Source: Strigamia acuminata (taxonomy: Eukaryota > Arthropoda > Chilopoda > Geophilomorpha > Linotaeniidae). Taken from it: a DNA stretch of 64,000 nt. The stretch covers positions 3,968,001 to 4,032,000 of the forward strand of contig OX442322.1 in assembly GCA_949358305.1 (NCBI GenBank). Direction: 5' to 3'. This document shows, piece by piece, positions 9,742 through 33,133 of this stretch (its first letter is position 1; each line of letters begins with the position of its first letter). The position numbers and the translations under genes were made by a program. The notes below the pieces were generated by a model. That model searched no databases and had not been told where the DNA came from. It saw only the letters and a program-made list of their open reading frames with translations.

Positions 9742-10298
9742 TGTAGCTCTGTGACGCAATAAATGCACGATAAATCGTGCTGGAAGCGTGAAAATAACGT
9801 GCTCACGGCAATGCATGAGCTGGAAAAATTGCCGTGATGCGTAAACGCGAGTTCGGGTCTGTATTGGGCCAGAAAACGCGTGTACCACACTTATAAAGAC
9901 GTGTGGCACATAAACTAATACTGATAATTAACAAAATACACTTTAATTCGAGAAAACTTACATAATTGATCCAAAAACCATTGGAAAACATAGAGAAACA
10001 CACTGGCTGTGTGCGCGGCCATTTGCAATGTGCCAGAGACATCTGGTGGCCGATATTATAAACAATAATAATGAAAAACATAAGAACAAGATAGAGGATG
10101 CATGAAACCTAATGTAGTGAGTACATTTAACCCGGTATCATGCATTCTCTTTACAAACAAGCATGAAAACACTAAATAAACACTGAATAACCCAGGAAAA
10201 TGGAAACAATTACCGATAAATGATAAAATAAACATTTTAAAGCCATTTCACATCGAAAAACGATTTAATTAGGTGAAAAGCGGTTCCAAAGTCCAACA
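9742..10298 (-). repeat. Copia-2 3' LTR
   Basis: 557 bp, TGTAGCTCTG...GTCCAACA, nearly identical to 15947-16503. The interior next to it (10299-10312) reads as a purine tract (TCGAAGGAGGGAAT) on the element strand. Confidence 0.92.
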
Positions 10299-10344
10299 AT
10301 TCCCTCCTTCGATGTAAAATGTTGGTGTTGAATGATCGAAAAAG

Positions 10345-13300: not shown

Positions 13301-15224
13301 GCGCCACCAATGGAAGGCAGTCTCGACGGGCCCCAGACGTCCATGTGAAGCAATTCAAGCGGTTTCGTGGTCGAAGGCGCGGAAATCGACTTATGCGGAG
13401 CACGCGTAGACTTGGCGACACGGCACGTGTTGCATGAAAGTTCCTGTCGAACAGCAGCTGGATCAAGTCCGTAAACCTGGGAGTTAGCAGCCAAAGTCCG
13501 CATGGCTTTGGTGTGCAGGTGACCCAGTCTGCTGTGCCACAATCCCGTGGCATCCGCGACATTGACCGACGTAGTAACCGGTTTAGGAGGTGATGTTGCA
13601 TTTGACTTAGCAACAGGAGGAGGTGATGTTGCGTTTGACTTGGCAATGGGAAGAGGAGAGGTGAGGGCATTGGAATACATCCGGATCTGTTGAGGTTGGG
13701 ATCCGGGAATAGGAGCAGGACTGGTAGGAAAAAATGAAGGGACCAGTAAGGTGTTGGAGGAGACGGGCAAGCGGAAATCGGTCATATTGTCAGCCGACTT
13801 CGTCTTAGCCTTGTTGGAAGGCTTGGGCAATGCGGGAAAGTCTTCTTCCTTCGTCACTAGAGTGGTCGGTGTCGGAGTCGGAGGCAACGATGAAACGGGT
13901 GGAGAACTCGAAACATTAGTCGGAGCGGCGAATGGCGAGATAAGCCCATCCACGAAATAAAGTCCAGACTTCTGTTTCGCCCGAAGAACACTTAGTTTGA
14001 TGTCCGTTTCATACATATGCAATTCCGAGTTGTGAATGTGGATGTGATGTCCGCATTTATCAATCCGAGAAACCGAGATTAAGTTGGCGCTGAAGTCAGG
14101 TGCGAATAAGACGTCGCGTAGCATTACGGTGCATTCGCAGCCATCGATGAGCGACTTGACCGGAACGTCACCTTTGCCTGTGACCTTCGAACTGCCTTGT
14201 CCTAACTCGATGTTAAACGGGACAACGGAAACAAAGTTCGTGAACCACGCTTGAACGTGCGAGACGTGGTCTGTTGCGCCACAATCAACGATCCACTCGT
14301 GGCATTGGAGGAAATGTACAGTCGGTGCTGTAACAACTGGTGGCGCAGACAAGAGGTACGCAGCATCACGTCTCGGGCGGGAAATTTCACGGCTTTGACC
14401 ACCGGGTTGCTGAGAATTGGTTCTTTTCCGTCGTCGGTTTTTGCTGCGAGATCGACCTTGTAGTGCAGCTGCCGGTTGCTGTTCCTTCGATTGTCGGCGC
14501 GGAAGAGGGCATTTGTTCGCGTAGTGGCCCATCTGATCGCAATTGAAACAACAAATTTGCGATAGTGGACGAGGATTGCGAGATTGACTGCGGTTGCGAT
14601 TGTCCGCGGCGAATGCCGACGTCTTCTTCGTATTGTGATCGGATTTCAACTTCAAACGAAGGTATTCCGACAAGAGCTGTTCGGAGACTTTGGCCGGGGT
14701 AAAATTCGCCAACGGCCAATGGTAAATGGAGAACGTTGCCTGGTCGTAATCCGCCGGAAGAAAATCGAGGTACTGGTAGGCCTGATGTCGAGGGAGAATG
14801 TCCTCCGATGTCCTTCAATTGACGAACCATCAGGTCTACACGCCCCATCTCCTCGTTCGGCTCCAGTTTCAATTGCAAGAACTGTCGGCGCATAGCTGCC
14901 TGACGGGCGAGTGAACTGGGGGCGTAGATCTTGGCGAGCATGTCCCATTGTTCCTTCGGTGTCTCGCAGCCATCGAGTGCCGACTGTTTGGCTTCGGATA
15001 CCAAACAATAAATGGTTCCTAGGGCTCGTTCCTTGCGACGTTGATATTTGCGTTTCTCCTTGTCATCCGCCGTCTTCAGGAAATCCTCCTCGCCGTCTTC
15101 TGTGACGTGATGCCACAGGCCTTCACTTTTGAGCAACATCTTAACTGTTCGTTGCCATTGTTCGTAGTTGCCGGTCGTCAGGACCGGTACACGTCCCGAC
15201 GTCGCTTCGGAAGCCTTTTGCATG
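10345..15224 (-). pseudogene. Copia-2 gag-pol polyprotein, three lesions
   Basis: Starting at the ATG at 15224, the order is: gag (UBN2-like, with LWHHVTEDGE and ARQAAMRRQFLQL), a zinc knuckle (CFNCDQMGHYANKC), protease (WIVDCGATDHVSH), GAG-pre-integrase (LWHSRLGHLH), integrase core (HMDVWGPS, FTIIDDATRY, IRTDRGGEFIS and NGVAERLNRT), connection domain, RT (VYVDDIV) and RNase H (SVACSTMEAEFVAL) ending DIFTKWLSSERLR. The lesions are a one-base-type frameshift in gag near 14815-14825, an in-frame TGA at about 12790 between integrase and connection domain, and a TGA at about 11667 just before the RT motif LVAQGF. Both stops sit where the flanking frame simply continues. Confidence 0.88.
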
Positions 15225-15946
15225 ATTGCGGAGGAAAAATCGTCGAAAAATTTCCGAAAATCGAAGCACAATTGACGAAATCAAAGCACTTTTCACTCGA
15301 AGCACTCGAAGCACTACCGACGCACACACAAACGTTGTTCGAAGCGGAAAGACCTCGACGGGGAGCCAATGCTAAAATTGGCTTGAAAACCTTAGACAAG
15401 TGTCCCCCTAACGTCCTTTATGACCACCTGGGGCCGCGGGAATGTTAGGTGGCGCAGGGCTCAGCCTTGTCTAAGAATACAGTGACGCTTGCCCAGATTT
15501 GGACGAAGGGCGCCAAGGATTCTAATTGACCCACACCAAAAAAACTTAAAACTAACAAATAAATTCGAAATCTGAAATAAAAAGAAGGAGAAGTTGATGA
15601 ATCTGTATGCACAGACGTCCCTGTGCACACCGCGCATAAAAAATGCGGAATTCTTCAAAAGATCGCCGACCGATTTCGAAAATCGGGAAAAAAATCGCCG
15701 TCCGATTGTGAAAATCGGGAAAAACTTCTGAAAAAAAATTCGCCGTACATCGGGGTACTAAGCGAGATGAAGTTCTATGTGGCCACACTGTACTCCGGGG
15801 TACAAAGTGTGTCGAGACATCGGAAATTCGGCGAAAAACTGAAAATAAACAAAAATTTCCGCACAAATCGCGAAAAAATCGCGAAATTAACGGAAAATTA
15901 GTGAAAAAACGAGGCACTGGTGTCTTTCCAGGCCTCTGCTACCACT
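15225..15946 (-). other. Copia-2 leader with initiator tRNA-Met primer-binding site
   Basis: This is the untranslated leader between the 5' LTR and gag. The complement of 15933-15944 reads TGGTAGCAGAGG, 12 nt matching the 3' end of animal initiator tRNA-Met, two bases inside the LTR. The short ORFs in the leader have no recognisable similarity. Confidence 0.75.
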
Positions 15947-16503
15947 TGTAGCTCTGTGGCGCAATAAATGCACGATAAATCGTGCTGGAAGCGTGAAAAT
16001 AACGTGCTCACGGCAATGCATGAGCTGGAAAAATTGCCGTGATGCGTAAACGCGAGTTCGGGTCTGTATTGGGCCAGAAAACGCGTGTACCACACTTATA
16101 AAGACGTGTGGCACATAAACTAATACTGATAATTAACAAAATACACTTTAATTCGAGAAAACTTACATAATTGATCCAAAAACCATTGGAAAACATAGAG
16201 AAACACACTGGCTGTGTGCGCGGCCATTTGCAATGTGCCAGAGACATCTGGTGGCCGATATTATAAACAATAATAATGAAAAACATAAGAACAAGATAGA
16301 AGATGCATGAAACCTAATGTATTGAGTACATTTAACCCGGTATCATGCATTCTCTTTACAAACAAGCATGAAAACACTAAATAAACACTGAATAACCCAG
16401 GAAAATGGAAACAATTACCGATAAATGATAAAATAAACATTTTAAAGCCATTTCACATCGAAAAACGATTTAATTAGGTGAAAAGCGGTTCCAAAGTCCA
16501 ACA
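15947..16503 (-). repeat. Copia-2 5' LTR
   Basis: Identical in length to the left LTR, with about three substitutions (for example GTGGCGC against GTGACGC at the start). Confidence 0.92.
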
Positions 16504-16926: not shown

Positions 16927-17109
16927 TGTTAATGTAATTTGCTATCTCGATAAGAGATGGCACTCTTCTCTGTTTAATTTTATGTATCACCACCTGGTGA
17001 CAATTTCTTTTATTCATCACTATTAAAGTCTCCAAGATGGCGACCTACATGGCCGTGTGTGTTTCTTCACCTGACAACACTTCTAGAGATATAAAGATAA
17101 GCGCCAACA
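16927..17109 (+). repeat. Copia-1 3' LTR (about 183 bp)
   Basis: It starts TGTTAATG directly after the purine tract and ends GCGCCAACA, where copia-3 coding sequence begins on the other strand. The TGTT...AACA ends fit an LTR. It contains CCAAGATGGC at 17032. The right boundary is inferred from where copia-3 homology begins; the 5' LTR is outside the window. Confidence 0.65.
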
Positions 17110-18086
17110 GTGCAGGATTAGGATTAGGTAACGGTTTAGTAGGAGTTAGGGTCGGAATATGGTTTACGACGTCCGGAGGAAGTAACTCCATACGAAAATC
17201 CGTTATGTGCTGCATTTTAGATTTCGGTTTCCTTTTCGGTTTCGGAATGGGCTCGAAATCAACCTCGGAAGTGACCAATGTCTTGACAGGAACTGTCGGT
17301 GGAGGCTGAAGAGCTGTCGAAACTGTTGTCGAAATAGTCGGAGTCACACAAAGTCCGTCAACGTAATATAATCCACCCTTCTCTTTTGCTCGGAGAACCG
17401 ATGAGCGAATGTCAGATTGGTAAACATTTATTTCTCCGTCGTATACGTGGATGTGAAACTTATGTCTGTCGATTTTGCTCACGGAGACCAGATTTGCCTC
17501 AAAGTTTGGTGCAAATAAGACATTGTGCAATGTTACGAAGCAATCACACTTATCAATCGAGGTCTGAAGTCGTACATTTCCACGTCCGGTGACTTTGGAC
17601 TTGCCCTGTCCGAGCTCGATGTCGAATGGCGTAATCTGTTCAAAGTCCGAAAACCACGACTGAATGTGAGAAACGTGGTCGGTGGCCCCGCAGTCAACGA
17701 TCCATTCGTTTGACTGCATAAAATGTGCAATGGGACTCTCGATGATTTGAGGACAATTTACGAAAAAGTTCGCATCTCGGCGTGGTCTGGAACTGCCTCG
17801 GGGTTTGGAATCCTCCTGCTTCGGCGCGTTTTTATTACGTTGACGGCTCTTGCTGCGAGATGAGCGTTGGACTTGTGCAGCGGGTGCCTGGCGATTCTGT
17901 CCATCGCCTTTCTGATGAGGGCACTTATTCGCATAATGTCCAAGTTCTTGGCAGTTAAAACATTTCACCGTAGACAAATCACGCGAAGGTCGAGACGAGT
18001 TCCGTTGTTGCCGAGACTGATTAGTGTTCAAAGCATGCGCTGAAGATTGTTGGGAATTGTTCGTATGTATTGACTTTAGACGCATG
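17110..18086 (-). pseudogene. Copia-3 gag end and protease, cut at both sides
   Basis: On the minus strand it reads from the 6-bp target duplication into an Asn/Gln/Ser-rich stretch, a zinc knuckle (CFNCQELGHYANKC), an Arg/Ser-rich region and the protease (WIVDCGATDHVSH), ending in a Pro-rich linker where copia-1 is inserted. It is collinear with copia-2. Its N-terminal gag half is at 32018-32598, 14 kb away across the palindrome, and the two halves rejoin in frame. The remaining pol would lie left of copia-1, outside the window. Confidence 0.82.
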
Positions 18087-18157
18087 AGTAGTGGGTTTGT
18101 GGGGATCCTGGGCCAGTGGTTGGTGGTGAGGGGGGGGTGGGGGTGGTGAGGGTTAAG

Positions 18158-18245
18158 TGGGGAGGGGGAGATAAGGGGAGGGGGAGATAAGGGGAGGGGG
18201 AGATAAGGGGAGGGGGAGATAAGTGGAGGGGGAGATAAGGGGAGA
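18158..18245 (+). repeat. G-rich terminal repeat, left end
   Basis: Five to six copies of the 16-bp unit GGGGAGGGGGAGATAA, preceded by more G runs (18127-18150). G runs of four to five bases at this spacing can form G-quadruplexes on the strand with its 5' end at the element terminus. Confidence 0.85.
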
Positions 18246-18740
18246 GCTAAGTGGGGGTGACTAATTGCTTCAATCAATTAGATCATTAGATCATTGTGTC
18301 TTAGTCTATTATTTGTTATTGTTGTTTTACTTTACTTAAGTGCCTCGTTGTTTTTCCCAAAATTCAAAGGACCCTTAGGTTACTTTTAACTAAAGGCAGG
18401 ATATTATTGGCTAGTCATCTTTGATCACTTGGAATCATCAATCAATTAGTCTTATCATTTGATCTTTGTATCCTAGACTGTTATTTGTTATTGGTGTTTT
18501 TCTTTACTTAAGTGCCCTGTTGATGTTTTTCCCAAATTTTCAAAGGACCCTGGTATCATCATTCAATTAGACTTATCATTTGATCATTGTGTCCTAGACT
18601 ATTATTTGTTATTGTTGTTTTTCTTTACTTATGTATCATGTTGTTGTTTTTCCTAAATTTTCAATGAACCCAAAGGCTACTTTAAACCAAAGGAAGGATA
18701 TTATTGGCTTGACATCCTAACCCGTGAGAAACTAGTAATG

Positions 18741-18748
18741 TATATATA
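18741..18748 (+). promoter_or_regulatory. TATA box of the left PC4-like gene
   Basis: TATATATA, 78 bp ahead of the ATG at 18827; the right arm has the same sequence in mirror position. Confidence 0.5.
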
Positions 18749-18826
18749 CCTGCAATTTCCTACACACTTCTCTTCACTTCTTCCATCGCATTTTGGGATA
18801 CTCACCATTTCTTTCACAAACTAGCC

Positions 18827-19336
18827 ATGTGTACTACTACAAGCAGCAGAATCCTCTCACTTGGTGGGGAGAATTATTGCCAAATCACCTCATTTTTGTC
18901 AACTGTTTTTATCCACCTGAGACGTTTTCAATCTTGCTCGAATGGAAAACTTTATCCTAGTTGTGAAGGTATGGCTATGAATACGTCATTATTTTATGAT
19001 TTCATGAACCATTGGGAGCAGATTTCAAGCGAACTTTCATCTATGAAAAACAATCCAATGAAAACATCATCATCTATTGACTGTGGTGGTGTATTAGTTA
19101 GCATAAGCAAGTCAAAAACTGCAGTTGTATCCATGAAGATATGGTGTTCTTGTAACCCAGGAATGTTTATTATTCTTCCTATTGATCAATGGCGTCAACT
19201 CTTGATGTATAAATCATATATATTTTCAACCATTGATGTGGCATTGGCAAAGCTGCAAGATTGTAACCCATTTGATGAGGAGGAAACACCTGCTGCAACT
19301 GGAATTGAAACTTCAACCACATCTCGTGTTTTCTGA
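18827..19336 (+). CDS. PC4-like candidate protein, 169 aa (left copy, intact)
   Basis: An uninterrupted 169-codon ORF from an ATG, with a TATA box upstream and pointing inward to the tandem array. Residues 86-143 show a beta-rich stretch (GGVLVSISKSKTAVVSMKIW), then IILPIDQWRQLL, then a helix ending TIDVALAKL. This order matches the PC4/Sub1 single-strand-DNA-binding fold, whose C-terminus has 'I-S-L-x-x-x-Q-W-x-x-L' followed by 'I-D-x-A-x-x-x-L'. The match is by eye, so I treat it as a candidate; if right, the role would be single-stranded DNA binding in transcription or replication. The N-terminal 50 residues are Cys/Ser-rich and unrecognised; the C-terminus is acidic and then Thr/Ser-rich. 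Confidence 0.5.
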   Translation: MCTTTSSRILSLGGENYCQITSFLSTVFIHLRRFQSCSNGKLYPSCEGMAMNTSLFYDFMNHWEQISSELSSMKNNPMKTSSSIDCGGVLVSISKSKTAVVSMKIWCSCNPGMFIILPIDQWRQLLMYKSYIFSTIDVALAKLQDCNPFDEEETPAATGIETSTTSRVF

Positions 19337-19917
19337 TGAAAATGATGAAGATTAGATTTCTACTTAATTTGTTATTTGTATTGATATAATGGAAATTGTA
19401 TACTTTTTGTTTAGATTTTTTGTACATATTTCTACTTTATATTAATTATAAGTTAGCGATAAAATTGCTTTATTTTCATTCTACCATTGAATTGGGGTTG
19501 TAGTCTCCTTTTTTTTTTAACATAATAATGCATATCTCTTCCTTTGAAATACAGCATAAACTGTAATATCATGTATGCATATATTGTTTCTATGATTTCT
19601 CACTAGTAGGTGCGCGAGCAGCTTGAGGTTATGTGAATGAAAACGAGTAACCTGTGCAGCACTTACGTTGCATGAAGACTAATGAACTGCATGAGGAGTT
19701 TGAGCTGGTGTACCATTCACTGTGTTAACAGGAGTCCATAGCAATCTATTGTTACGCATCACATTTTGCTGAGAACACAACTACTTTCAAGTGAATATTG
19801 GAACTCTATTCAATTGGATCTAATCGAGCGGATCATACCCACCCAAACTCAACCCGTTAGTGTTATGATATTATGACACGACAACACATTGAACCTCTTC
19901 CTGATTCTACAGATGGT
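19337..19917. other. Downstream region of the left PC4-like gene
   Basis: About 580 bp without a supported gene. It includes AT-rich 3' sequence with ATTAAT and TTTATT words and a more mixed segment (19610-19900) of no recognised kind. It is mirrored at 30186-30767. Confidence 0.5.
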
Positions 19918-22110
19918 GAGTAATTTTAAATGAATCAAAAGTGCTTTAAAATAAATCAAAAGTGATTTAAAATGAATCAAAGTGATTTAAAATGAATCAA
20001 AGGTGATTTAAAATGAATCAAAAGCGATATAAATTGAATCAAAATATGATCAAAACTCATTCAAAATGAATCAAAATATGATCAAAACTCAATCTTAATG
20101 AATCAAAATGAATAAAAAAAAAGAATGAAAATTTGAATGAAACAAATACTTAATCAAAATGAATCAAAAATGATTCAAAACTTAAACAAAAGAAATCAAA
20201 ACTTAATCAAATGAATCAAAATCAATCAAAACTGATTCAAAACGAAATCAAAGTGAATCAAAGTGATTTCAAATGAATCAAAAGTGATTTAAAATTTATC
20301 AAAATTTAATCAAAATATATCAAAACTTAATGAAATGAAATCAAAACTTAATGAAATCAAATCAAAACTTAATGAAATGAAATCAAAACTTAATGAAATG
20401 AAATCAAAACTTAAACAAAAGAAATCAAAACTTAATCAAACTGAATCAAAATTGTTTCAAAACTTTATCAAAATGAAACAAAACTGATTCAAAACTTAAT
20501 TAAAATGAATCAAAAATGTTTCAAAACTTAATCAAAATCAATCAAAACTGATTCAAAACGAAATCAAATTGAATCAAAGTGATTTCAAATGAATCAAAAG
20601 TGATTTAAAATTTATCAAAACTTAATCAAAATATATCAAAACTTAATGAAATGAAATCAAAACTTAATAAAATCAAAACTTAATGAAATGAAATCAAAAC
20701 TTAATGAAATGAAATCAAAACTTAAACAAAAGAAATCAAAACTTAATCAAACTGAATCAAAATTGTTTCAAAACTTTATCAAAATGAAACAAAACTGATT
20801 CAAAACTTAATCAAAATGAATCAAAAATGTTTCAAAACTTAATCAAAATCAATCAAAACTGATTCAAAACGAAATCAAATTGAATCAAAGTGATTTCAAA
20901 TGAATCAAAAGTGATTTAAAATTTATCAAAACTTAATCAAAATATATCAAAACTTAATGAAATCAAATCAAAACTTAATGAAATCAAATCAAAACTTAAT
21001 GAAATCAAATCAAAACTTAAACAAAATAAATCAAAACTAAATCCAAATGAAATCAAAACTAAATCTAAATGAAATCAAAACTAAATCCAAATGAAATCAA
21101 AACTAAATCCAAATAAAATCAAAACTAAATCCAAATGAAATCAAAACTAAATCAAAATGAAATCAAAACTTAAACAAATAAAATCAAAACTTAATCAAAA
21201 TAAATCAAATAAATAAAAAAGGAATCAAAATTTCAAATGAAACAAATACTTAATCAAAATAAATAAAAAAAAAAAAAAAAAAAAAAATGAAATCAAAACT
21301 TAAACAAATGAAATCAAAACTAAATCCAAATGGAATCAAAACTTAATCAAAATGAAATCAAATCACATTCAAAACTAAATCCAAATGAAATCAAAACTTA
21401 AACAAATAAAATCAAAACTTAAACAAATGAAATCAAAACTTAAACAAATGAAATTAAAACTTAAACAAATGAAATCAAAACTTAAACAAATGAAATCAAA
21501 ACTTAAACAAATGAAATCAAAACTAAAACAAAATAAATCAAAACTTAATCAAAACTTAATCTAAACGAAGTCAAATCTCAATCAAAACTGAATCGAAATG
21601 AAATCAAAACTCATTCAAAACTTAATCGTAATGATACAAATACTCAATCAAAACTTAATCAAAATGAAACAAAATGAATCAAAACTAATTCAAAACTTAA
21701 TCAAAATGAATCAAAAATGATTCAAAACTTAAACAAAATAAATCAAAACTTAATCAAATGAATCAAAACTCAATCAAAACTTAATCGAAATAAAACAAAT
21801 ACTTAATCAAAACTTAATCGTAATGAAACAAATACTTAATCAAAACTTAATCTGAATGAAATCAAAACTCAATCAAAACTTTAATTGAAATGAAACAAAT
21901 ACTTAATCAAAACTTAATCAAAATGAAAACAAATCTCAATCAAAACTTAATTGAAATGAAATAAAAACTGAATCAAAACTTAATTGTAATGAAACAAATA
22001 CTTAATCAAATCAATCAAAACTGATTCCAAAACTTAATCGAATGTTTCAAAACTTAATCAAAAATGATTCAACATTTATTCAAAATGAAGCAAATACTTA
22101 ATCAATTTTT
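19918..22110. repeat. AT-rich tandem array, left arm (about 2.2 kb)
   Basis: Continuous degenerate repeats built on AATCAAAACTT / AATGAATCAAAA words (about 11-22 bp), with higher-order blocks and one long A run at about 21260. It lies between two convergent genes. Confidence 0.9.
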
Positions 22111-22294
22111 ACTTCATAATTTATAGATTAAACTGATAATTTGTTGATTTCTCTTAGATTTGATTGAAATGTCACTCAGAACTTTCACTGCTGGGAAATA
22201 ATGATTAAAAATAAAAGTAAAAAAATAAAAAAAAATAAAAAAAAAAATAAATAATGGGTTTTAAAATGACAAAATTTATTTTTTATAATTTTTA

Positions 22295-22807
22295 CTATGC
22301 TTTGCGACAATGGGGACATTTATGAACAAACTTTCCCCATTCTCTTATACAAATGTGGTGAAAAGTATGTCCACACCCTAACATATTAACATTTTCTCCT
22401 ATACAAATTACATTACTACAAATGATACAATCCTTGTTAATATCCTCCAAAAGTATTTTTGGAATTAGTTGCACTGCAGGTGGAACTGCTACATCTGCGG
22501 GTGGAGGTAGTATTTCTGCTAATGGGGCTGCTACATCTGCTGGTGGAGGTAGTATGTTTGCTGCTTGAGGTCCTACATCTGCTGGTGGTTGCAGATATCG
22601 CAACATTTGTTGCTGCTCACTCATTATCAACTCCAATGTCTGAATGTGATTTTGGAGTGATTGAATATGTTCACGCATATTTTCGTTTTCCTCATTTTGC
22701 TGCTGTATGTATTGGAAAACATACCGGAGCTCGCCTGGTCTTGGGATATTCATCATCTGTTGCGGTGGTAGTAATGGTGGTGAATTTGCTGCACGATTTT
22801 CTTCCAT
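22295..22807 (-). CDS. RING-H2 protein, 170 aa (left copy, last residue lost)
   Basis: A minus-strand ORF starting at an ATG with a TATAAAAGG box about 80-90 bp upstream. Residues 28-70 are Gln/Glu-rich and probably coiled coil. Residues 72-116 hold three copies of a PPADV-containing unit. Residues 127-167 form a RING-H2 finger: C127-C130-C145-H147-H150-C153-C164-C167. RING-H2 proteins are usually E3 ubiquitin ligases; the substrate is unknown. Compared with the right copy, the final Trp codon is TAG here, so it ends one residue early, which should not matter. It is convergent with the PC4-like gene across the array. Confidence 0.85.
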   Translation of the reverse strand: MEENRAANSPPLLPPQQMMNIPRPGELRYVFQYIQQQNEENENMREHIQSLQNHIQTLELIMSEQQQMLRYLQPPADVGPQAANILPPPADVAAPLAEILPPPADVAVPPAVQLIPKILLEDINKDCIICSNVICIGENVNMLGCGHTFHHICIREWGKFVHKCPHCRKA

Positions 22808-23843
22808 TATTTCTTCTGAGTGTTCAAATATTTGAAGTGGTGCTCTCTATGTCAAGTTTGTCTATGCTGTAGAGTCTTTAAGTAAACCCTTTTATACCTA
22901 CTCTTGCTGTAAGATCACCTGACACCACCACCACCATTATTCATATTGTTTTGTATGTAGTTGTCATCATTTTCCATTGTTTTCAAAGAATGTGCACTCT
23001 ATTTTTAAACAAAGTTGTTTTTCACAATTGTAGTCCCCCTTAATGACTTTCAGGTGCATGTTTACGTGAAACTATCACCATTATTCAGTGTACATTAGGT
23101 CTAGTTTTTAACATTTTCCTTGTTTTCAAAAATAAAAGTCAACTCTATTTTTAAACAACTTTGTTTTTCACATATATATAGTACTCCTTATTTTACTTGA
23201 AGAGTTTCTTTAGATTTGTTTGAAATGTCTCTCAGAACTCTCTCTAATGACAAACCCAAACTAATCCATTAAATTAATTTATTATTTCCCTTCATCAATT
23301 AATAATTTTTTCTTTCTTTTATCGTTTTTTCTCATTTTTCAACTTTCCTTCAAACAACTTCTAAATTCCACCTACATTTTAAATAACTGAATTTTACAAA
23401 GAAACTAATTTTTTTTTAAATAAATTATACAAAAAGTAACTAAATTTTTAACTAATTTATAGAAGTTTATAGAAACTAAATTCATAAAACTTTTAAAACC
23501 TTTAATTTGCAACAATGTCAGCCTCCAATTATTGAGAATGTGCAGTGATTTTATGACGACAAGTGTTGCGGTGATATCATTTTTAGATCTCTACAGATTT
23601 TTTTAATTGTATAAAATTAATTATCAAGAACTATAAAGGTGTTCTCTAGATATTATAGAAAAAATCAGATAAATCTTCCTTAAAAAAAAAAAAAAAAAAA
23701 AGCAAATCCTCACTCTTATTTCATCTCATTTATTTTTTTTTTAAAGATAAATGGATAACTCAGAGAGAAAAAAAGTACACACATAATTTTCAAACAATAC
23801 AATTATTTAAAGCATCACACAAAATAATAAAAAAAAAAATGAT
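22808..23843. other. Spacer between the RING and membrane-protein genes, left arm
   Basis: AT-rich, with the RING promoter (TATA at about 22889-22896) and poly-A/T tracts. Nothing coding is supported. It is mirrored at 25464-26500. Confidence 0.55.
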
Positions 23844-24354
23844 TCAGTTATCCGGGAAAATTTCCTTTGGGTGGGGCCAAGGAATAAAAGTAGTTGATGA
23901 CATTTCTTTCTTCATCAGAGGTAATACTGCTTCAGGGGCATTCCCGCAAATGCTTTCATCACTTGAAGTCGAGAAAGTAACATCTAAGGAGAAAAAACAA
24001 AGAAAAATTTAAAAAAAAAAAAAAATAATAATAATAATAATAATATTAATAATTTTAAAAGCTGACAGAAAATGTTTTACTTACACCCCATTGCATATCC
24101 AAATATCATTATAAAAAACGAAATAATGGTCATTAAAAGCCATCTCCTCTTGTTGAAAAAAATTGAGCAAGTCTAAACATTTTAAAAAAATAATAATAAT
24201 AATAATAATAATAATTAAAATTCATTGTCTTAAAATTAGTAAAATATCTCACCATCATGCTAATTTTCCTCATAATTTCATTAGAAGAAGAAACTTGTTC
24301 ATCTTCACTCCTTTCAAATTGAGAGAGATTTACCTGAACAGCAATTTCAACCAT
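23844..24354 (-). CDS. Three-exon single-pass membrane protein, 109 aa (left copy)
   Basis: The exons on minus are 24354-24253, 24172-24085 and 23983-23844, with the same GT/AG signals as the right copy. It differs at one visible codon (Lys where the right copy has Glu, in the PLM-x-KE segment). The architecture is described under 24954-25463. Confidence 0.7.
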
Positions 24355-24648
24355 GTCTGATGCATAAAGTTTTAACTATTAGTTTCACTTTTCTAAAATA
24401 ACACAGGAAATACAGGAAAGGTGGGTTAAATATAGAAAAAAAGGGGAGAAATAAAACTTTTATTGATGGAGTAATCTGGTGGTGAAATTCACTTCCACTT
24501 TTATTTTATTTTTTTTTTTTTACAAAATTCAGAATATTTCATCTAAAATCATCCAAATATGATAAAATTTCGTAATATTTCATCTATTTTCAACTAATTA
24601 TAATAAAAATCGTAATATTTTATGTAATTCCATCCAAAATTTGATAAA

Positions 24649-24659
24649 ATATTATGAGC
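24649..24659. other. Centre (spacer) of the palindrome
   Basis: ATATTATGAGC, 11 nt not shared between arms, flanked by GATAAA and TTTATC. Such a short asymmetric loop fits a fold-back replication product. Confidence 0.9.
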
Positions 24660-24953
24660 TTTATCAAATTTTGGATGGAATTACATAAAATATTACGATT
24701 TTTATTATAATTAGTTGAAAATAGATGAAATATTACAAAATTTTATCATATTTGGATGATTTTAGATGAAATATTCTGAATTTTGTAAAAAAAAAAAAAT
24801 AAAATAAAAGTGGAAGTGAATTTCACCACCAGATTACTCCATCAATAAAAGTTTTATTTCTCCCCTTTTTTTCTATATTTAACCCACCTTTCCTGTATTT
24901 CCTGTGTTATTTTAGAAAAGTGGAACTAATAGTTAAAACTTTATGCATCAGAC

Positions 24954-25463
24954 ATGGTTGAAATTGCTGTTCAGGTAAATCTCTCTCAATTTGAAAGGAG
25001 TGAAGATGAACAAGTTTCTTCTTCTAATGAAATTATGAGGAAAATTAGCATGATGGTGAGATATTTTACTAATTCTAAGACAATGAATTTTAATTATTAT
25101 TATTATTATTATTATTATTTTTTTAAAATGTTTAGACTTGCTCAATTTTTTTCAACAAGAGGAGATGGCTTTTAATGACCATTATTTCGTTTTTTATAAT
25201 GATATTTGGATATGCAATGGGGTGTAAGTAAAACATTTTCTGTCAGCTTTTAAAATTATTAATATTATTATTATTATTATTATTTTTTTTTTTTTTAAAT
25301 TTCTCTTTGTTTTTTCTCCTTAGATGTTACTTTCTCGACTTCAAGTGATGAAAGCATTTGCGGGAATGCCCCTGAAGCAGTATTACCTCTGATGGAGAAA
25401 GAAATGTCATCAACTACTTTTATTCCTTGGCCCCACCCAAAGGAAATTTTCCCGGATAACTGA
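24954..25463 (+). CDS. Three-exon single-pass membrane protein, 109 aa (right copy)
   Basis: Exon 1 is 24954-25055 (ATG; donor ATG|GTGAGA). Exon 2 is 25136-25223 (acceptor TTTAG; donor GGT|GTAAGT). Exon 3 is 25324-25463 (acceptor CTCCTTAG; TGA). Phases 0 and 1 join into 109 codons. Residues 1-34 are polar with Ser/Glu clusters. After NKRRW a hydrophobic helix runs from about residue 45 to 62 (LLMTIISFFIMIFGYAMG). The remaining 46 residues hold one Cys and end in a Pro-rich tail. With basic residues before the helix and no signal peptide, a type II orientation is likely. The family is not recognised. Unspliced reading gives only a Tyr-repeat artefact from intron 1. The gene points outward from the palindrome centre, back to back with its mirror copy. 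Confidence 0.72.
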
Positions 25464-26500
25464 ATCATTTTTTTTTTATTATTTTGTGTGATGCTTTAAA
25501 TAATTGTATTGTTTGAAAATTATGTGTGTACTTTTTTTCTCTCTGAGTTATCCATTTATCTTTAAAAAAAAAAAATAAATGAGATGAAATAAGAGTGAGG
25601 ATTTGCTTTTTTTTTTTTTTTTTTTTAAGGAAGATTTATCTGATTTTTTCTATAATATCTAGAGAACACCTTTATAGTTCTTGATAATTAATTTTATACA
25701 ATTAAAAAAATCTGTAGAGATCTAAAAATGATATCACCGCAACACTTGTCGTCATAAAATCACTGCACATTCTCAATAATTGGAGGCTGACATTGTTGCA
25801 AATTAAAGGTTTTAAAAGTTTTATGAATTTAGTTTTTATAAACTTCTATAAATTAGTTAAAAATTTAGTTACTTTTTGTATAATTTATTTAAAAAAAAAT
25901 TAGTTTCTTTGTAAAATTCAGTTATTTAAAATGTAGGTGGAATTTAGAAGTTGTTTGAAGGAAAGTTGAAAAATGAGAAAAAACGATAAAAGAAAGAAAA
26001 AATTATTAATTGATGAAGGGAAATAATAAATTAATTTAATGGATTAGTTTGGGTTTGTCATTAGAGAGAGTTCTGAGAGACATTTCAAACAAATCTAAAG
26101 AAACTCTTCAAGTAAAATAAGGAGTACTATATATATGTGAAAAACAAAGTTGTTTAAAAATAGAGTTGACTTTTATTTTTGAAAACAAGGAAAATGTTAA
26201 AAACTAGACCTAATGTACACTGAATAATGGTGATAGTTTCACGTAAACATGCACCTGAAAGTCATTAAGGGGGACTACAATTGTGAAAAACAACTTTGTT
26301 TAAAAATAGAGTGCACATTCTTTGAAAACAATGGAAAATGATGACAACTACATACAAAACAATATGAATAATGGTGGTGGTGGTGTCAGGTAATCTTACA
26401 GCAAGAGTAGGTATAAAAGGGTTTACTTAAAGACTCTACAGCATAGACAAACTTGACATAGAGAGCACCACTTCAAATATTTGAACACTCAGAAGAAATA
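25464..26500. other. Spacer between the membrane-protein and RING genes, right arm
   Basis: Mirror of 22808-23843. It contains the TATAAAAGG box at 26412-26420 for the RING gene; otherwise AT-rich with no supported gene. Confidence 0.55.
26412..26420 (+). promoter_or_regulatory. TATA box of the right RING gene
   Basis: TATAAAAGG, 89 bp ahead of the ATG at 26501, a good match to a metazoan core promoter at a usual distance. Confidence 0.6.
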
Positions 26501-27016
26501 ATGGAAGAAAATCGTGCAGCAAATTCACCACCATTACTACCACCGCAACAGATGATGAATATCCCAAGACCAGGCGAGCTCCGGTATGTTTTCCAATACA
26601 TACAGCAGCAAAATGAGGAAAACGAAAATATGCGTGAACATATTCAATCACTCCAAAATCACATTCAGACATTGGAGTTGATAATGAGTGAGCAGCAACA
26701 AATGTTGCGATATCTGCAACCACCAGCAGATGTAGGACCTCAAGCAGCAAACATACTACCTCCACCAGCAGATGTAGCAGCCCCATTAGCAGAAATACTA
26801 CCTCCACCCGCAGATGTAGCAGTTCCACCTGCAGTGCAACTAATTCCAAAAATACTTTTGGAGGATATTAACAAGGATTGTATCATTTGTAGTAATGTAA
26901 TTTGTATAGGAGAAAATGTTAATATGTTAGGGTGTGGACATACTTTTCACCACATTTGTATAAGAGAATGGGGAAAGTTTGTTCATAAATGTCCCCATTG
27001 TCGCAAAGCATGGTAA
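26501..27016 (+). CDS. RING-H2 protein, 171 aa (right copy, complete)
   Basis: Same protein as 22295-22807 but ending CRKAW before TAA. All eight zinc ligands of the RING-H2 finger are present. Its 3' end faces the tandem array, where the right PC4-like copy also ends. Confidence 0.87.
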   Translation: MEENRAANSPPLLPPQQMMNIPRPGELRYVFQYIQQQNEENENMREHIQSLQNHIQTLELIMSEQQQMLRYLQPPADVGPQAANILPPPADVAAPLAEILPPPADVAVPPAVQLIPKILLEDINKDCIICSNVICIGENVNMLGCGHTFHHICIREWGKFVHKCPHCRKAW

Positions 27017-27199
27017 AAATTATAAAAAATAAATTTTGTCATTTTAAAATCCATTATTTATTTTTTTTTTTATTTTTTTTTTATTTTTTTACTTTTATTT
27101 TTAATCATTATTTCCCAGCAGTGAAAGTTCTGAGTGACATTTCAATCAAATCTAAGAGAAATCAACAAATTATCAGTTTAATCTATAAATTATGAAGTA

Positions 27200-30185
27200 A
27201 AAATTGATTAAGTATTTGCTTCATTTTGAATAAATGTTGAATCATTTTTGATTAAGTTTTGAAACATTCGATTAAGTTTTGGAATCAGTTTTGATTCATT
27301 TGATTAAGTATTTGTTTCATTACAATTAAGTTTTGATTCAGTTTTGATTTCATTTCGATTAAGTTTTGATTGAGATTTGTTTTCATTTTGATTAAGTTTT
27401 GATTAAGTATTTGTTTCATTTCAATTAAAGTTTTGATTGAGTTTTGATTTCATTCAGATTAAGTTTTGATTAAGTATTTGTTTCATTACGATTAAGTTTT
27501 GATTAAGTATTTGTTTTATTTCGATTAAGTTTTGATTGAGTTTTGATTCATTTGATTAAGTTTTGATTTATTTTGTTTAAGTTTTGAATCATTTTTGATT
27601 CATTTTGATTAAGTTTTGAATTAGTTTTGATTCATTTTGTTTCATTTTGATTAAGTTTTGATTGACTATTTGTATCATTACGATTAAGTTTTGAATGAGT
27701 TTTGATTTCATTTCGATTCAGTTTTGATTGAGATTTGACTTCATTTGGATTAAGTTTTGATTAAGTTTTGATTTATTTTGTTTTAGTTTTGATTTCATTT
27801 GTTTAAGTTTTGATTTCATTTGTTTAAGTTTTGATTTCATTTGTTTAAGTTTTAATTTCATTTGTTTAAGTTTTGATTTCATTTGTTTAAGTTTTGATTT
27901 TATTTGTTTAAGTTTTGATTTTATTTGGATTTAGTTTTGAATGTGATTTGATTTCATTTTGATTAAGTTTTGATTCCATTTGGATTTAGTTTTGATTTCA
28001 TTTGTTTAAGTTTTGATTTCATTTTTTTTTTTTTTTTTTTTTTTATTTATTTTGATTAAGTATTTGTTTCATTTGAAATTTTGATTCCTTTTTTATTTAT
28101 TTGATTTATTTTGATTAAGTTTTGATTTTATTTGTTTAAGTTTTGATTTCATTTGGATTTAGTTTTGATTTTATTTGGATTTAGTTTTGATTTCATTTGG
28201 ATTTAGTTTTGATTTCATTTAGATTTAGTTTTGATTTCATTTGGATTTAGTTTTGATTTATTTTGTTTAAGTTTTGATTTGATTTCATTAAGTTTTGATT
28301 TGATTTCATTAAGTTTTGATTTGATTTCATTAAGTTTTGATATATTTTGATTAAGTTTTGATAAATTTTAAATCACTTTTGATTCATTTGAAATCACTTT
28401 GATTCAATTTGATTTCGTTTTGAATCAGTTTTGATTGATTTTGATTAAGTTTTGAAACATTTTTGATTCATTTTGATTAAGTTTTGAATCAGTTTTGTTT
28501 CATTTTGATAAAGTTTTGAAACAATTTTGATTCAGTTTGATTAAGTTTTGATTTCTTTTGTTTAAGTTTTGATTTCATTTCATTAAGTTTTGATTTCATT
28601 TCATTAAGTTTTGATTTCATTTCATTAAGTTTTGATATATTTTGATTAAGTTTTGATAAATTTTAAATCACTTTTGAATCATTTGAAATCACTTTGATTC
28701 AATTTGATTTTGTTTTGAATCAGTTTTGATTGATTTTGATTAAGTTTTGAAACATTTTTGATTCATTTTGATTAAGTTTTGAATCAGTTTTGTTTCATTT
28801 TGATAAAGTTTTGAAACAATTTTGATTCAGTTTGATTAAGTTTTGATTTCTTTTTTTTTTTTTTTTTTTTTTTTATTTATTTTGATTAAGTATTTGTTTC
28901 ATTTGAAATTTTGATTCCTTTTTTATTTATTTGATTTATTTTGATTAAGTTTTGATTTTATTTGTTTAAGTTTTGATTTCATTTTGATTTAGTTTTGATT
29001 TCATTTGGATTTAGTTTTGATTTTATTTGGATTTAGTTTTGATTTCATTTGGATTTAGTTTTGATTTCATTTAGATTCAGTTTTGATTTCATTTGGATTT
29101 AGTTTTGATTTATTTTGTTTAAGTTTTGATTTGATTTCATTAAGTTTTGATTTGATTTCATTAAGTTTTGATATATTTTGATTAAGTTTTGATAAATTTT
29201 AAATCACTTTTGATTCATTTGAAATCACTTTGATTCAATTTGATTTCGTTTTGAATCAGTTTTGATTGATTTTGATTAAGTTTTGAAACATTTTTGATTC
29301 ATTTTGATTAAGTTTTGAATCAGTTTTGTTTCATTTTGAATCAGTTTTGAAACAATTTTGATTCAGTTTGATTAAGTTTTGATTTCTTTTGTTTAAGTTT
29401 TGATTTCATTTCATTAAGTTTTGATTTCATTTCATTAAGTTTTGATTTCATTTCATTAAGTTTTGATATATTTTGATTAAGTTTTGATAAATTTTAAATC
29501 ACTTTTGATTCATTTGAAATCACTTTGATTCAATTTGATTTCGTTTTGAATCAGTTTTGATTGATTTTGATTAAGTTTTGAAACATTTTTGATTCATTTT
29601 GATTAAGTTTTGAATCAGTTTTGTTTCATTTTGATAAAGTTTTGAAACAATTTTGATTCAGTTTGATTAAGTTTTGATTTCTTTTGTTTAAGTTTTGATT
29701 TCATTTCATTAAGTTTTGATTTCATTTCATTAAGTTTTGATTTGATTTCATTAAGTTTTGATTTCATTTCATTAAGTTTTGATATATTTTAATTAAATTT
29801 TGATAAATTTTAAATCACTTTTGATTCATTTGAAATCACTTTGATTCATTTTGATTTCGTTTTGAATCAGTTTTGATTGATTTTGATTCATTTGATTAAG
29901 TTTTGATTTCTTTTGTTTAAGTTTTGAATCATTTTTGATTCATTTTGATTAAGTATTTGTTTCATTCAAATTTTCATTCTTTTTTTTTATTCATTTTGAT
30001 TCATTAAGATTGAGTTTTGATCATATTTTGATTCATTTTGAATGAGTTTTGATCATATTTTGATTCAATTTATATCGCTTTTGATTCATTTTAAATCACC
30101 TTTGATTCATTTTAAATCACTTTGATTCATTTTAAATCACTTTTGATTTATTTTAAAGCACTTTTGATTCATTTAAAATTACTCA
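27200..30185. repeat. AT-rich tandem array, right arm (about 3.0 kb)
   Basis: Complement of the left array (TTTTGATTAAG words). It contains a duplicated block of about 0.8 kb, recognised from two poly-T tracts followed by the same segment (28021 and 28853), which accounts for most of the arm length difference. Confidence 0.9.
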
Positions 30186-30767
30186 CCATCTGTAGAATCA
30201 GGAAGAGGTTCAATGTGTTGTCGTGTCATAATATCATAACACCAACGGGTTGAGTTTGGGTGGGTATGATCCGCTCGATTAGATCCAATTGAATAGAGTT
30301 CCAATATTCACTTGAAAGTAGTTGTGTTCTCAGCAAAATGTGATGCGTAACAATAGATTGCTATGGACTCCTGTTAACACAGTGAATGGTACACCAGCTC
30401 AAACTCCTCATGCAGTTCATTAGTCTTCATGCAACGTAAGTGCTGCACAGGTTACTCGTTTTCATTCACATAACCTCAAGCTGCTCGCGCACCTACTAGT
30501 GAGAAATCATAGAAACAATATATGCATACATGATATTACAGTTTATGCTGTATTTCAAAGGAAGAGATATGCATTATTATGTTAAAAAAAAAAAAGGAGA
30601 CTACAACCCCAATTCAATGGTAGAATGAAAATAAAGCAATTTTATCGCTAACTTATAATTAATATAAAGTAGAAATATGTACAAAAAATCTAAACAAAAA
30701 GTATACAATTTCCATTATATCAATACAAATAACAAATTAAGTAGAAATCTAATCTTCATCATTTTCA
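30186..30767. other. Downstream region of the right PC4-like copy
   Basis: Mirror of 19337-19917; no supported gene. Confidence 0.5.
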
Positions 30768-31277
30768 TCAGAAAACACGAGATGTGGTTGAAGTTTCAAT
30801 TCCAGTTGCAGCAGGTGTTTCCTCCTCATCAAATGGGTTACAATCTTGCAGCTTTGCCAATGCCACATCAATGGTTGAAAATATATATGATTTATACATC
30901 AAGAGTTGACGCCATTGATCAATAGGAAGAATAATAAACATTCCTGGGATACAAGAACACCATATCTTCATGGATACAACTGCAGTTTTTGACTTGCTTA
31001 TGCTAACTAATACACCACCACAGTCAATAGATGATGATGTTTTCATTGGATTGTTTTTCATAGATGAAAGTTCGCTTGAAATCTGCTCCCAATGGTTCAC
31101 GAAATCATAAAATAATGACGTATTCATAGCCATACCTTCACAACTAGGATAAAGTTTTCCATTCGAGCAAGATTAAAAACGTCTCGGGTGGATAAAAACA
31201 GTTGACAAAAATGAGGTGATTTGGCAATAATTCTCCCCACCAAGTGAGAGGATTCTGCTGCTTGTAGTAGTACACAT
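30768..31277 (-). pseudogene. PC4-like candidate, right copy with premature stop
   Basis: Mirror of 18827-19336. Codon 35 is CAA in the left copy (18929-18931) but TAA here (31173-31175), so the full protein is not made. Reinitiation at a later ATG (31133) would give 121 residues that still cover the PC4-like region. Confidence 0.8.
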
Positions 31278-31857
31278 GGCTAGTTTGTGAAAGAAATGGT
31301 GAGTATCCCAAAATGCGATGGAAGAAGTGAAGAGAAGTGTGTAGGAAATTGCAGGTATATATACATTACTAGTTTCTCACGGGTTAGGATGTCAAGCCAA
31401 TAATATCCTTCCTTTGGTTTAAAGTAGCCTTTGGGTTCATTGAAAATTTAGGAAAAACAACAACATGATACATAAGTAAAGAAAAACAACAATAACAAAT
31501 AATAGTCTAGGACACAATGATCAAATGATAAGTCTAATTGAATGATGATACCAGGGTCCTTTGAAAATTTGGGAAAAACATCAACAGGGCACTTAAGTAA
31601 AGAAAAACACCAATAACAAATAACAGTCTAGGATACAAAGATCAAATGATAAGACTAATTGATTGATGATTCCAAGTGATCAAAGATGACTAGCCAATAA
31701 TATCCTGCCTTTAGTTAAAAGTAACCTAAGGGTCCTTTGAATTTTGGGAAAAACAACGAGGCACTTAAGTAAAGTAAAACAACAATAACAAATAATAGAC
31801 TAAGACACAATGATCTAATGATCTAATTGATTGAAGCAATTAGTCACCCCCACTTAG

Positions 31858-31950
31858 CTCTCCCCTTATCTCCCCCTCCACTTATCTCCCCCTCCCCTTA
31901 TCTCCCCCTCCTCTTATCTCCCCCTCCCCTTATCTCCCCCTCCCCACTTA
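31858..31950 (-). repeat. G-rich terminal repeat, right end (C-rich on plus)
   Basis: The mirror copy of 18158-18245 with single-base differences. The G-rich strand again has its 5' end at the element terminus. Confidence 0.85.
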
Positions 31951-32017
31951 ACCCTCACCACCCCCACCCCCCCCTCACCACCAACCACTGGCCCAGGATC
32001 CCCACAAACCCACTACT

Positions 32018-32598
32018 CGCATGTATTCCGAGAGAAGTTGTTCGGCCACTAGAACGGGCTTGAACTTGTCATCCGGCCAATGATATATGGCAAACGAAAC
32101 TTGAGAATATTCTGGAGGAAGACGATGGAGGTATTGGTACGCATGGTGGATATCTGATACCTCCTCTTGGACGGATTTAAGTTGGCTGACATGGTAGTCG
32201 ACGCGGGCGATGAAATCCGCCATTTCCTCGTTCGGTTGGAGACGAAGCGCAAGGAAATCCCAGCGCATCGCGGCTTGACGCGCGCGAGAGCTGGGAGCGT
32301 AGATCTGGGCCAACTTATCCCAAGATTGTTTGGGAGTGTCACAATTATCGAGGACTGACTTTTTCGCCTCCGAAACAAAACAGTAAATCAGGCCAAGCGC
32401 CTTGTCCTTTTTGCGCTGGTATTTCACTTTTTCTTTGTCCGATGCGGTTTTCAAATATTTGAGTTCGTCGGTTTCCGTTACGTGGTGCCATAGTCCTTCT
32501 GCTTTGAGGAGCATTCGCATGCTCCTCTGCCATGAGTCATAGTTCCCCACAGCAAGCACGGGCACTCTGCCGCTGTTCGGATCGCTCACTTTCTGCAT
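32018..32598 (-). pseudogene. Copia-3 gag, N-terminal half
   Basis: Starting at the ATG 32598, it reads a UBN2-type gag collinear with copia-2 (NYDSWQRSMRMLLKAEGLWHH, QAAMRWDFLALRL, NEEMADFIARVDYHV, FAIYHWP and AEQLLSEYM). No internal stop is seen. It stops at the CGCATG duplication where the palindrome begins. The frame resumes at 18086 on the other side. Confidence 0.87.
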
Positions 32599-33133
32599 GA
32601 TGGTGGCAGCAAAGGCGACACAAAACACGAAAAATCACACAAGCGACGAGAGTGGTATTGGCGCACTAAATTCGAAGCACAGATAAACACGAAGCACTTC
32701 ACCGACACACACTTTCCCTCGTGGTTCAATGCGGAAACCGAGATGGGGCGATTCCTTCTGAAGGAATCAGAAAACCCCCGATAGCCAGTCTGAGAGGGTC
32801 CGACCGGTTGCCTGGAACCGCGGGAAACCTCACTTGTACCTCGACAAGCACTATCGGGGAATACAACGACGCTTGCCCGGATTCGAGCGAAGGGCGCCGA
32901 GGATTCTAAATGTCCCACACCAAAATCCCCCTTAAATCTAACAATAATAATAATACGACCCTGAAAAATAAAGAAGGCGAAATGGAGATTCTGTGTGGGC
33001 TGGTCACCACACCGTCGTGTAGAAAACACGGGTTTGCTCGCTTTTCTCGAAAAAGCGGCTGAAAAGCGCATTCGACTTGAATAAATCGAGGAAAAATCCA
33101 AAAATCGTCAAAAAATAAGTAAATCGACGATAC
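32599..33133 (-). other. Copia-3 leader
   Basis: About 0.5 kb between gag and the presumed LTR. I did not find an initiator-Met primer-binding site, so the boundary is approximate. Confidence 0.45.

What the first reader, a model, noticed from the sequence alone, without database searches (positions are those of the whole stretch)
18087..32017. A 13.9-kb perfect-architecture palindrome that inserted as one unit with a 6-bp duplication
Seen: two arms around an 11-nt spacer, both outer ends starting 5'-AGTAGTGGG, and CGCATG on both sides. Excising 18087-32017 plus one CGCATG restores the copia-3 gag frame across the site. Known: Polinton/Maverick elements make 6-bp duplications, have 5'-AG ends and are thought to replicate by protein priming, a mode that yields fold-back genomes in linear DNA viruses. 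Inferred: a non-autonomous, mirror-image Polinton-like element made of two copies of one genome end and mobilised in trans by an integrase. This would be a Polinton counterpart of copy-back defective viral genomes.
Basis: partly seen in the sequence, partly recalled or inferred. Interest (0 to 1): 0.92.

Follow-up and report, generated by a model that had tools for sequence, protein, structure and literature searches.

The report
Mirror-image virus-like transposon that spreads
In what looks like an arthropod genome, a defective relative of Polinton "virus transposons" has become one big mirror image, lost the genes needed to move, and yet sits at four places or more, apparently by borrowing the machinery and even the end sequences of intact Polintons.

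Summary
Window 18087-32017 is a palindrome: arms 0.34% different outside a tandem array, 11-nt spacer, CGCATG on both sides. It sits in a copia-like element; 28 places hit by both flanks are uninterrupted there. It is one of at least four palindromic copies in this genome, each with its own 6-bp duplication. Eight Polintons share its ends, each with a 6-bp duplication, an integrase gene and one copy of the palindrome's terminal gene; palindromes have that gene at both ends and no integrase hit. So each arm is the PolB-distal end of a Polinton, doubled. The mirror probably arose once: the three copies that keep a centre share a 29-nt loop in an imperfect inverted repeat. In the outer 1.8 kb, 32 substitutions separating copies are in both arms and 15 others are private to one arm of one copy, so arms were nearly identical at insertion; a fold-back (hairpin) intermediate explains this best. 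Tips are mosaic: the first ~130 nt group with different full Polintons (firmly for two of four copies), the interior only with one another. Best reading: a non-autonomous, all-inverted-repeat Polinton, inherited as a palindrome and mobilised in trans. Replication and packaging are inferred.

The parts
18081..18086 (.). left 6-bp target-site duplication CGCATG
   Evidence: position present once at 28 uninterrupted relatives of the target
18087..24648 (+). left arm (6562 nt)
18087..18270 (+). left tip: AGTAGT end motif and GC-rich stretch shared with full Polintons; mosaic between copies. The inner limit is approximate.
18728..19336 (+). open frame, 202 codons, 55-57% identical to the PolB-distal terminal gene of full Polintons. 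It lacks their start Met and ~50 C-terminal residues; PC4-like match below cut-off
19919..22105 (+). A-rich minisatellite (units of about 11, 21, 32 and 42 nt)
22295..22846 (-). open frame, 183 codons, RING finger protein (PF13639 35.4 bits, cut-off 27.3)
24649..24659 (.). 11-nt spacer. It is the remnant of the ancestral centre after deletion of the 29-nt loop and flanking arm, which copies B, C and D still have in whole or part
24660..32017 (-). right arm (7358 nt)
26462..27013 (+). mirror copy of the RING open frame
27204..30182 (-). mirror copy of the minisatellite, longer by one 815-nt block
30771..31376 (-). mirror copy of the terminal-gene frame, one TAA inside
31834..32017 (-). right tip, mirror of the left tip (inner limit approximate)
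32018..32023 (.). right 6-bp target-site duplication CGCATG
17045..18086 (-). target: left piece of the interrupted copia-like open frame (Pol_BBD, zf-CCHC)
32024..32634 (-). target: right piece of the same frame

Best explanation
A non-autonomous Polinton (Maverick/adintovirus-type) derivative in which the whole element is terminal inverted repeat. A fold-back at a short imperfect inverted repeat (stem of about 40 bp, 29-nt loop) near the PolB-distal end of a Polinton copied that end back on itself once, giving a ~14-15-kb mirror genome without polymerase, integrase, ATPase or capsid genes. Because it kept two proper Polinton ends, the PolB and integrase of resident full Polintons replicate and insert it in trans, with the usual 6-bp duplication. 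At each cycle the two arms are made identical, most simply because single strands fold into a hairpin or the nascent strand completes itself on its own first arm. Tips are exchanged with the helper that replicates it. After insertion the exact centre tends to be deleted. Shown: structure, duplications, empty site, helper ends and genes, concerted arms, mosaic tips, three different centre deletions. Inferred: the fold-back step, trans-mobilisation, hairpin replication, packaging, direction of tip exchange.
For: Four palindromic copies with duplications CGCATG, GAGCAA, GACACT, GTAATA. Eight of eight bounded Polintons also have 6-bp duplications. Element F's first ORF (1135-codon piece) matches Maverick-type PolB proteins: best hits about 50-54% identical, one named adintovirus PolB 48%, several with PF03175 (best 120 of 4284 listed). 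F also has an rve+chromodomain integrase and a below-cut-off A32/IVa2-like ATPase match. INT lies in all eight and in no palindrome (110 of 4710 candidates scored; no frame over 202 codons inside copy A). Terminal gene once per full element, at both ends of each palindrome. Outer 1832 bp: within-copy differences A 6, B 8, C 0, D 1; between copies 17-28. Of 47 gap-free variable columns there, 32 are fixed in both arms of the copies and 15 are private to one arm of one copy; none of the 15 is shared by two copies. Array: within C 0 mismatches/2501, within D 3/2593, within A 11/1693; between copies 22-195 (815-nt piece E left out). Centre: shared loop and the same arm-specific differences in C and D, and in B where sequence remains. 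Tips: palindrome monophyly rejected (p-AU 2.65e-6), D with N/M 100/100, B with I 99/99; interior monophyly 100/100. Copy C, the one with an intact centre, is 14,250 nt against 15,424-15,545 nt for seven full Polintons (by coordinates).
Against: No extrachromosomal form, transcript or virion was seen; movement in trans is inferred from sequence. Capsid genes of the helpers were not identified by Pfam. The parental non-palindromic Polinton was not found in this assembly, so the origin step is indirect. Copy B's arrays are not alike between its arms: 85 mismatches over 1928 columns, mostly in the first 600, as far as from other copies; equality at insertion is supported for B only outside the array. 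Tip partners are firm only for B and D. A matches F/G over 40 nt but is closer to I over the next 95, and a C+H clade is rejected at p 0.009. Chromosomal gene conversion between arms could add to the concerted pattern.
Confidence: 0.8

Rival explanations
1. Recurrent copy-back: a non-palindromic parent (resident, now lost, or an exogenous adintovirus) repeatedly produced palindromic defective genomes at the same seed repeat, and each insertion is an independent fold-back.
For: The seed is an imperfect inverted repeat that could be a hot spot. Arms are nearly identical at insertion and the asymmetry shared between copies is confined to the 35 nt next to the loop. Snapback genomes of AAV are described as subgenomic products of replication (PMC8235507, abstract and passages).
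Against: The centre was found only in palindromic copies, never in a non-palindromic context (5 of 5 candidates scored; a short 60-nt match on C6 aside). Four or more events at one seed from an unseen parent are needed. Different tips on nearly one interior would need several parents.
Confidence: 0.15
2. Chromosomal gene conversion: palindromes inserted long ago and their arms were homogenised in the chromosome, as in Y-chromosome palindromes (recalled).
For: Between-copy differences are shared by both arms, as conversion would give.
Against: A and B hold 15 and 22 unconverted arm-specific substitutions outside the array. Within-copy divergence of C and D is under 0.1% outside the array and near zero inside it. 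The N/M-type tip in D is present at both ends with an intact target duplication.
Confidence: 0.08
3. A local inverted duplication after insertion: a single Polinton end inserted, then the chromosome was rearranged.
For: Inverted duplications arise at short interrupted inverted repeats (ODIRA, PMC4689423; search listing only; mechanism recalled).
Against: Target duplications flank the whole palindrome in 4 of 4 copies and the empty site is clean at copy A. Loci with retained centres share one centre.
Confidence: 0.02
4. Assembly or library artefact (fold-back reads, missed adapters).
For: The assembly does stumble at these elements: copy C's site is also on C1:51.72 Mb, where the element is cut off after 2.65 kb, and contig C78 looks like a chimera of two elements.
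Against: Each copy has two different flanks joined by a target duplication. Arms of A differ by an 815-nt block and substitutions, so they were read separately. Four sites show the same structure.
Confidence: 0.02

Closest known systems
Polinton/Maverick elements and adintoviruses (PMC8097293, passages read)
   Same: 6-bp target duplications; (AGT)2 end motif; terminal inverted repeats; relatives with PolB and integrase in the same genome
   Different: No polymerase, integrase, ATPase or capsid genes; the inverted repeat is the whole element (6.6 and 7.4 kb per arm in copy A, against best TIR alignments of 282-453 bp in the eight full elements here); two copies of one end
Adenovirus type 12 symmetric recombinant (SYREC) and incomplete-particle DNAs with one end doubled (recalled; Daniell 1976 not held; it is in the reference list of PMC12090768)
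   Same: Linear protein-primed virus, same genome end on both sides of a palindrome, dependent on helper
   Different: There a laboratory or virion population; here inserted in a genome assembly at several sites with target duplications and mosaic tips
AAV snapback genomes (PMC8235507, abstract and passages)
   Same: Self-complementary defective genomes from either end, symmetric or asymmetric, replicating with helper functions
   Different: A parvovirus (rolling-hairpin replication, recalled); the passages seen do not describe integrated families
Tetrahymena rDNA palindrome (recalled)
   Same: Giant palindrome seeded by a short inverted repeat with a ~28-nt spacer
   Different: Programmed, single locus, not a mobile element
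Foldback (FB) transposons (recalled)
   Same: Very long inverted repeats that contain tandem repeats
   Different: Unrelated ends and a different target duplication length (recalled); no Polinton relation

Membership tests
Polinton/Maverick (autonomous) | 6-bp target-site duplication | tested here: met
   4 of 4 palindromes, 8 of 8 bounded full elements, I's in a microsatellite; a ninth, on contig C78 (J), has none and was set aside as chimeric
Polinton/Maverick (autonomous) | 5'-AG ends, repeated end motif such as (AGT)2 | tested here: met
   AGTAGT at A, C, B's right end and F, G, H, I, K; AGTAGG in D, N, M; AATAGT at B's left end; motif from PMC8097293
Polinton/Maverick (autonomous) | Protein-primed PolB gene | tested here: not met
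   No frame over 202 codons inside copy A; PolB is in full element F; no PF03175 hit in any palindrome, though that model also misses F's PolB
Polinton/Maverick (autonomous) | Retrovirus-like integrase | tested here: not met
   INT in all eight bounded full elements, none in four palindromes
Polinton/Maverick (autonomous) | Packaging ATPase and capsid genes | tested here: not met
   In copy A only frames of 202 and 183/184 codons at the 150-codon limit
Non-autonomous Polinton derivative | Ends and terminal sequence shared with autonomous elements in the same genome | tested here: met
   terminal gene 55-57% identical
Non-autonomous Polinton derivative | Mobilised by the autonomous element's enzymes | not testable with these tools
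   Inferred from duplications, missing INT and mosaic tips
Copy-back/snapback defective viral genome | Two inverted copies of one genome end around a short unique loop | tested here: met
   29-nt loop in B, C, D; 11-nt remnant in A
Copy-back/snapback defective viral genome | Arises during replication of a parental genome and is packaged | not testable with these tools
   Parent not found in the assembly; no virion data
Foldback transposon | Own family of ends and characteristic duplication (recalled) | tested here: not met
   Ends are Polinton ends with 6-bp duplication

The most novel reading that the evidence does not exclude
A satellite of Polintons: a heritable mirror-image genome that replicates through a self-folding hairpin, so that one arm templates the other at each cycle, borrows the tips of whichever Polinton helps it, and stays near the helper's genome length because it is packaged in the helper's capsid. 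It would be integrated-DNA evidence for protein-primed, virus-like replication of Polintons and for interference by defective genomes in an animal germline.
Probability: 0.4. Interest if true: 0.88.

Novelty: new variant of a known kind. Interest (0 to 1): 0.74.

Why it matters
How Polintons replicate is known mainly by analogy with adenoviruses. A repeated set of mirror-image derivatives keeps a record of that process. Arms are nearly equal at insertion except beside the loop, tips are swapped with full elements, and lengths lie near full-element length. These make hairpin intermediates, trans-complementation and packaging testable in one genome. The copies also show how long palindromes decay in chromosomes: three of four have lost the exact centre or sequence next to it, each differently.

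Tried and rejected
Rejected: four independent fold-back sites. The different spacers of the copies looked like independent turn-around points at first, but B, C and D share one loop and A's 11-nt spacer is a deletion product. Rejected: 'the 15.4-kb elements lack PolB'. PF03175 missed them, but protein search shows that F's first ORF is PolB; the other seven were not tested for PolB. Rejected: element J (C78) as evidence for tip exchange within one Polinton. It lacks a target duplication, its left flank is the reverse complement of I's right flank, and its right flank (AAGATG) pairs with the left flank of the C22 element, so it looks like a chimeric contig. Its two rows were dropped from the trees (22 of 24 aligned rows used). 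Ends of O, C22 and single-end fragments were not put in the alignment or trees.

Led nowhere: protein searches with the terminal frame and the RING frame (no homolog at E<=0.001); RING relative at C1:31.64 Mb (next to a reverse transcriptase fragment; no Polinton gene among the three frames scanned there); Rfam scan of the window (0 matches); NCLDV capsid search (nothing, but no control rang either); literature searches for palindromic, non-autonomous or snapback Polintons (listings only, no such element in the titles or abstract starts shown; one search found 0 papers for six phrases); SYREC (one unrelated paper).

Not tested: selection on the two frames. The terminal frame has lost the start Met and C-terminus of its relatives and may be a relic.

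Full report
What is there. Window 18087-32017 is two self-complementary arms (18087-24648 and 24660-32017) around 11 nt, with CGCATG on both sides. Outside the A-rich minisatellite the arms differ by 6 of 1832 (outer) and 9 of 2533 (inner) positions. The minisatellite is 2187 nt on the left and 2979 nt on the right. It interrupts a copia-like frame. Joined flanks with one hexamer read open for 550 codons. The two 601-bp flanks share 28 other places at 83-94% where they are contiguous and overlap by 5-6 bp, so the uninterrupted site has the hexamer position once (40 of 398 and 40 of 298 candidates scored; one left-flank and two right-flank matches at 70-75% reach the junction without a listed partner).

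The family. The window lies in a 237.5-Mb assembly with TTAGG repeats at the start of C1, which suggests an arthropod (inference). Searching with the arm finds four palindromic copies: A (window), B C13:5261664-5288839 (with a nested Ty3/gypsy-type element in the right arm), C C30:8291-22540 and D C1:60085500-60098983. The searches score only the best candidates, so four is a lower bound. A cut-off duplicate of C's locus lies at C1:51720902; it has the same left flank and breaks off in the array, an assembly fault or allele. Target duplications are CGCATG, GAGCAA, GACACT and GTAATA.

The helpers. Eight elements bounded by the same ends (F, G, H, I, K, M, N, O) each carry a 6-bp duplication (CAGCTA, CAGCTT, GTTAGT, AATAAT, GATTCT, CCCATT, GACATA, CGACTC). 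I's lies in a microsatellite and is ambiguous. A ninth (J, contig C78) has none and appears chimeric. Seven of the eight are 15,424-15,545 nt long by coordinates and N is 31.7 kb. In F the first long ORF (1135-codon piece) matches Maverick-type PolB proteins over its length: best hits about 50-54% identical, several hits with PF03175, and one named PolB of a spider adintovirus at 48%. F also has an rve+chromodomain integrase, a below-cut-off A32/IVa2-like ATPase match and a 2OG-Fe(II) oxygenase. The integrase is present in all eight at 97-100% (one internal stop in N) and at no place inside a palindrome (110 of 4710 candidates scored). PolB itself was tested in F only. Capsid proteins were not recognised by Pfam in F.

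Which end was doubled. The palindrome's outer frame (202 codons) is 55-57% identical to a 233-234-codon gene that lies just inside one TIR of full elements; in F this is the end opposite PolB. Genome-wide it occurs once in each of the eight full elements and at both ends of each of the four palindromes. The palindrome version lacks the start Met and about 50 C-terminal residues. Further in, the arm has the minisatellite and a RING-finger frame; the latter has no match in F, H or N.

One origin. The centres of B, C and D share a 29-nt loop within an imperfect inverted repeat. At positions 14, 26 and 35 from the loop the two sides differ, and the differences are the same in C and D; B agrees wherever its deletion left sequence. 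In the outer 1.8 kb, by contrast, 0 of 15 within-copy variable columns are shared between copies. A lost the loop and about 240 nt of each arm and keeps 11 nt of one side; B and D have one-sided deletions. The centre is found only in palindromic context.

Arms in concert. In the outer 1832 bp, arms of one copy differ at 6 (A), 8 (B), 0 (C) and 1 (D) positions and copies differ at 17-28. Of 47 gap-free variable columns, 32 are fixed in both arms of each copy and 15 are private to one arm of one copy; columns with gaps were left out. In the array the best alignment within C has 0 mismatches and two gaps over 2501 columns, within D 3 over 2593 and within A 11 over 1693; between copies 22-195 (the 815-nt piece E left out). 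B is an exception: its two arrays differ by 85 over 1928, mostly in the first 600 columns, no closer than to other copies. I read this as rearrangement in the array after insertion, but it is not shown. Summed substitutions between arms outside the array are A 15/4365, B 22/4246, C 4/4581 and D 2/3003. So arms were identical, or nearly so, when C and D inserted, and probably for A and B. Full elements show the same for their shorter TIRs (95.8-99.7% in seven, 86.8% in O). The palindrome is the limit in which the TIR reaches the centre.

Mosaic tips. Over the first 130 aligned columns the palindromes do not form a clade (p-AU 2.65e-6): D groups with N/M (100/100) and B with I (99/99). Over columns 190-350 the palindromes form one clade (100/100), and D+N+M, C+H and B+I are each rejected. 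A equals F/G over 40 nt but is closer to I over the next 95. C equals H over 40 nt with 3/98 differences next, but a C+H clade is rejected at p 0.009, K being nearly as close. Tips have therefore been exchanged with full Polintons, at both ends of a palindrome alike; the direction is not shown.

Mechanism. Known for the family from PMC8097293 (passages): protein-primed PolB, 6-bp duplications, (AGT)2 ends that allow jumping-back, constrained element length. Put together: a nascent strand folded back once at the seed repeat; the product had two functional ends; helper PolB and integrase replicate and insert it; in single-stranded form it is a hairpin, and repair or self-templated completion makes the arms equal except beside the loop; copying begun on a helper's tip and switched in the shared GC-rich stretch would change both ends in one event. 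The near-helper length (14,250 nt in C; about 15.0 kb for D if its longer arm is doubled, coordinates) fits packaging but has one origin only and is not a test. Trans-mobilisation, hairpin replication and packaging are inferred.

Against. No molecule has been observed outside the chromosome. The parent is missing. Recurrent copy-back at a hot spot stays possible, and chromosomal conversion may contribute. The assembly has faults at these elements; none was seen at copy A.

Novelty. The open library gave no palindromic or non-autonomous Polinton in six searches (listings, plus passages of PMC8097293 and PMC2836005). The nearest precedents are helper-dependent symmetric adenovirus DNAs (recalled) and AAV snapback genomes (PMC8235507, passages). 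I rate it a new variant of a known kind.

Noticed in passing
G000:C1 ~39.2-40.5 Mb and C8 ~8.06 Mb: Clusters of RING-finger frames related to the palindrome's RING gene, with two partial matches to its terminal gene (C1:39336105, C1:40410581; E 2e-18 and 4e-26). Possibly an old viral or Polinton-rich region; an NCLDV capsid search found nothing, but no control rang.
   Followed up: partly
G000, many contigs: 79 PF03175 PolB matches (fragments included), often in frames of ~1340 codons, and more than 60 integrases about 40% identical to F's: a second, larger Polinton population.
   Followed up: no
G000:C78:55796-71276 and C22:5994: Small contigs that seem to join halves of different Polintons (left flank of J = right flank of I reversed; J's right flank pairs with C22's left flank), a likely assembly chimera.
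   Followed up: partly
G000:C1:51720902 (L024): The main scaffold carries copy C's site with the element cut off in the minisatellite and joined to unrelated sequence, while contig C30 holds the whole palindrome.
   Followed up: partly
window 9742-16503: Two 557-bp direct repeats 99.5% identical around copia-type reverse transcriptase frames: apparently a recent LTR element next to the palindrome's target.
   Followed up: no
window 2467-4389: P-element/THAP9-type transposase-like frame (PF21787, PF21788; the THAP9 link is recalled), 640 codons.
   Followed up: no
window 44265-45854 and 56515-58101: 1.6-kb direct repeat, 99.3% identical.
   Followed up: no
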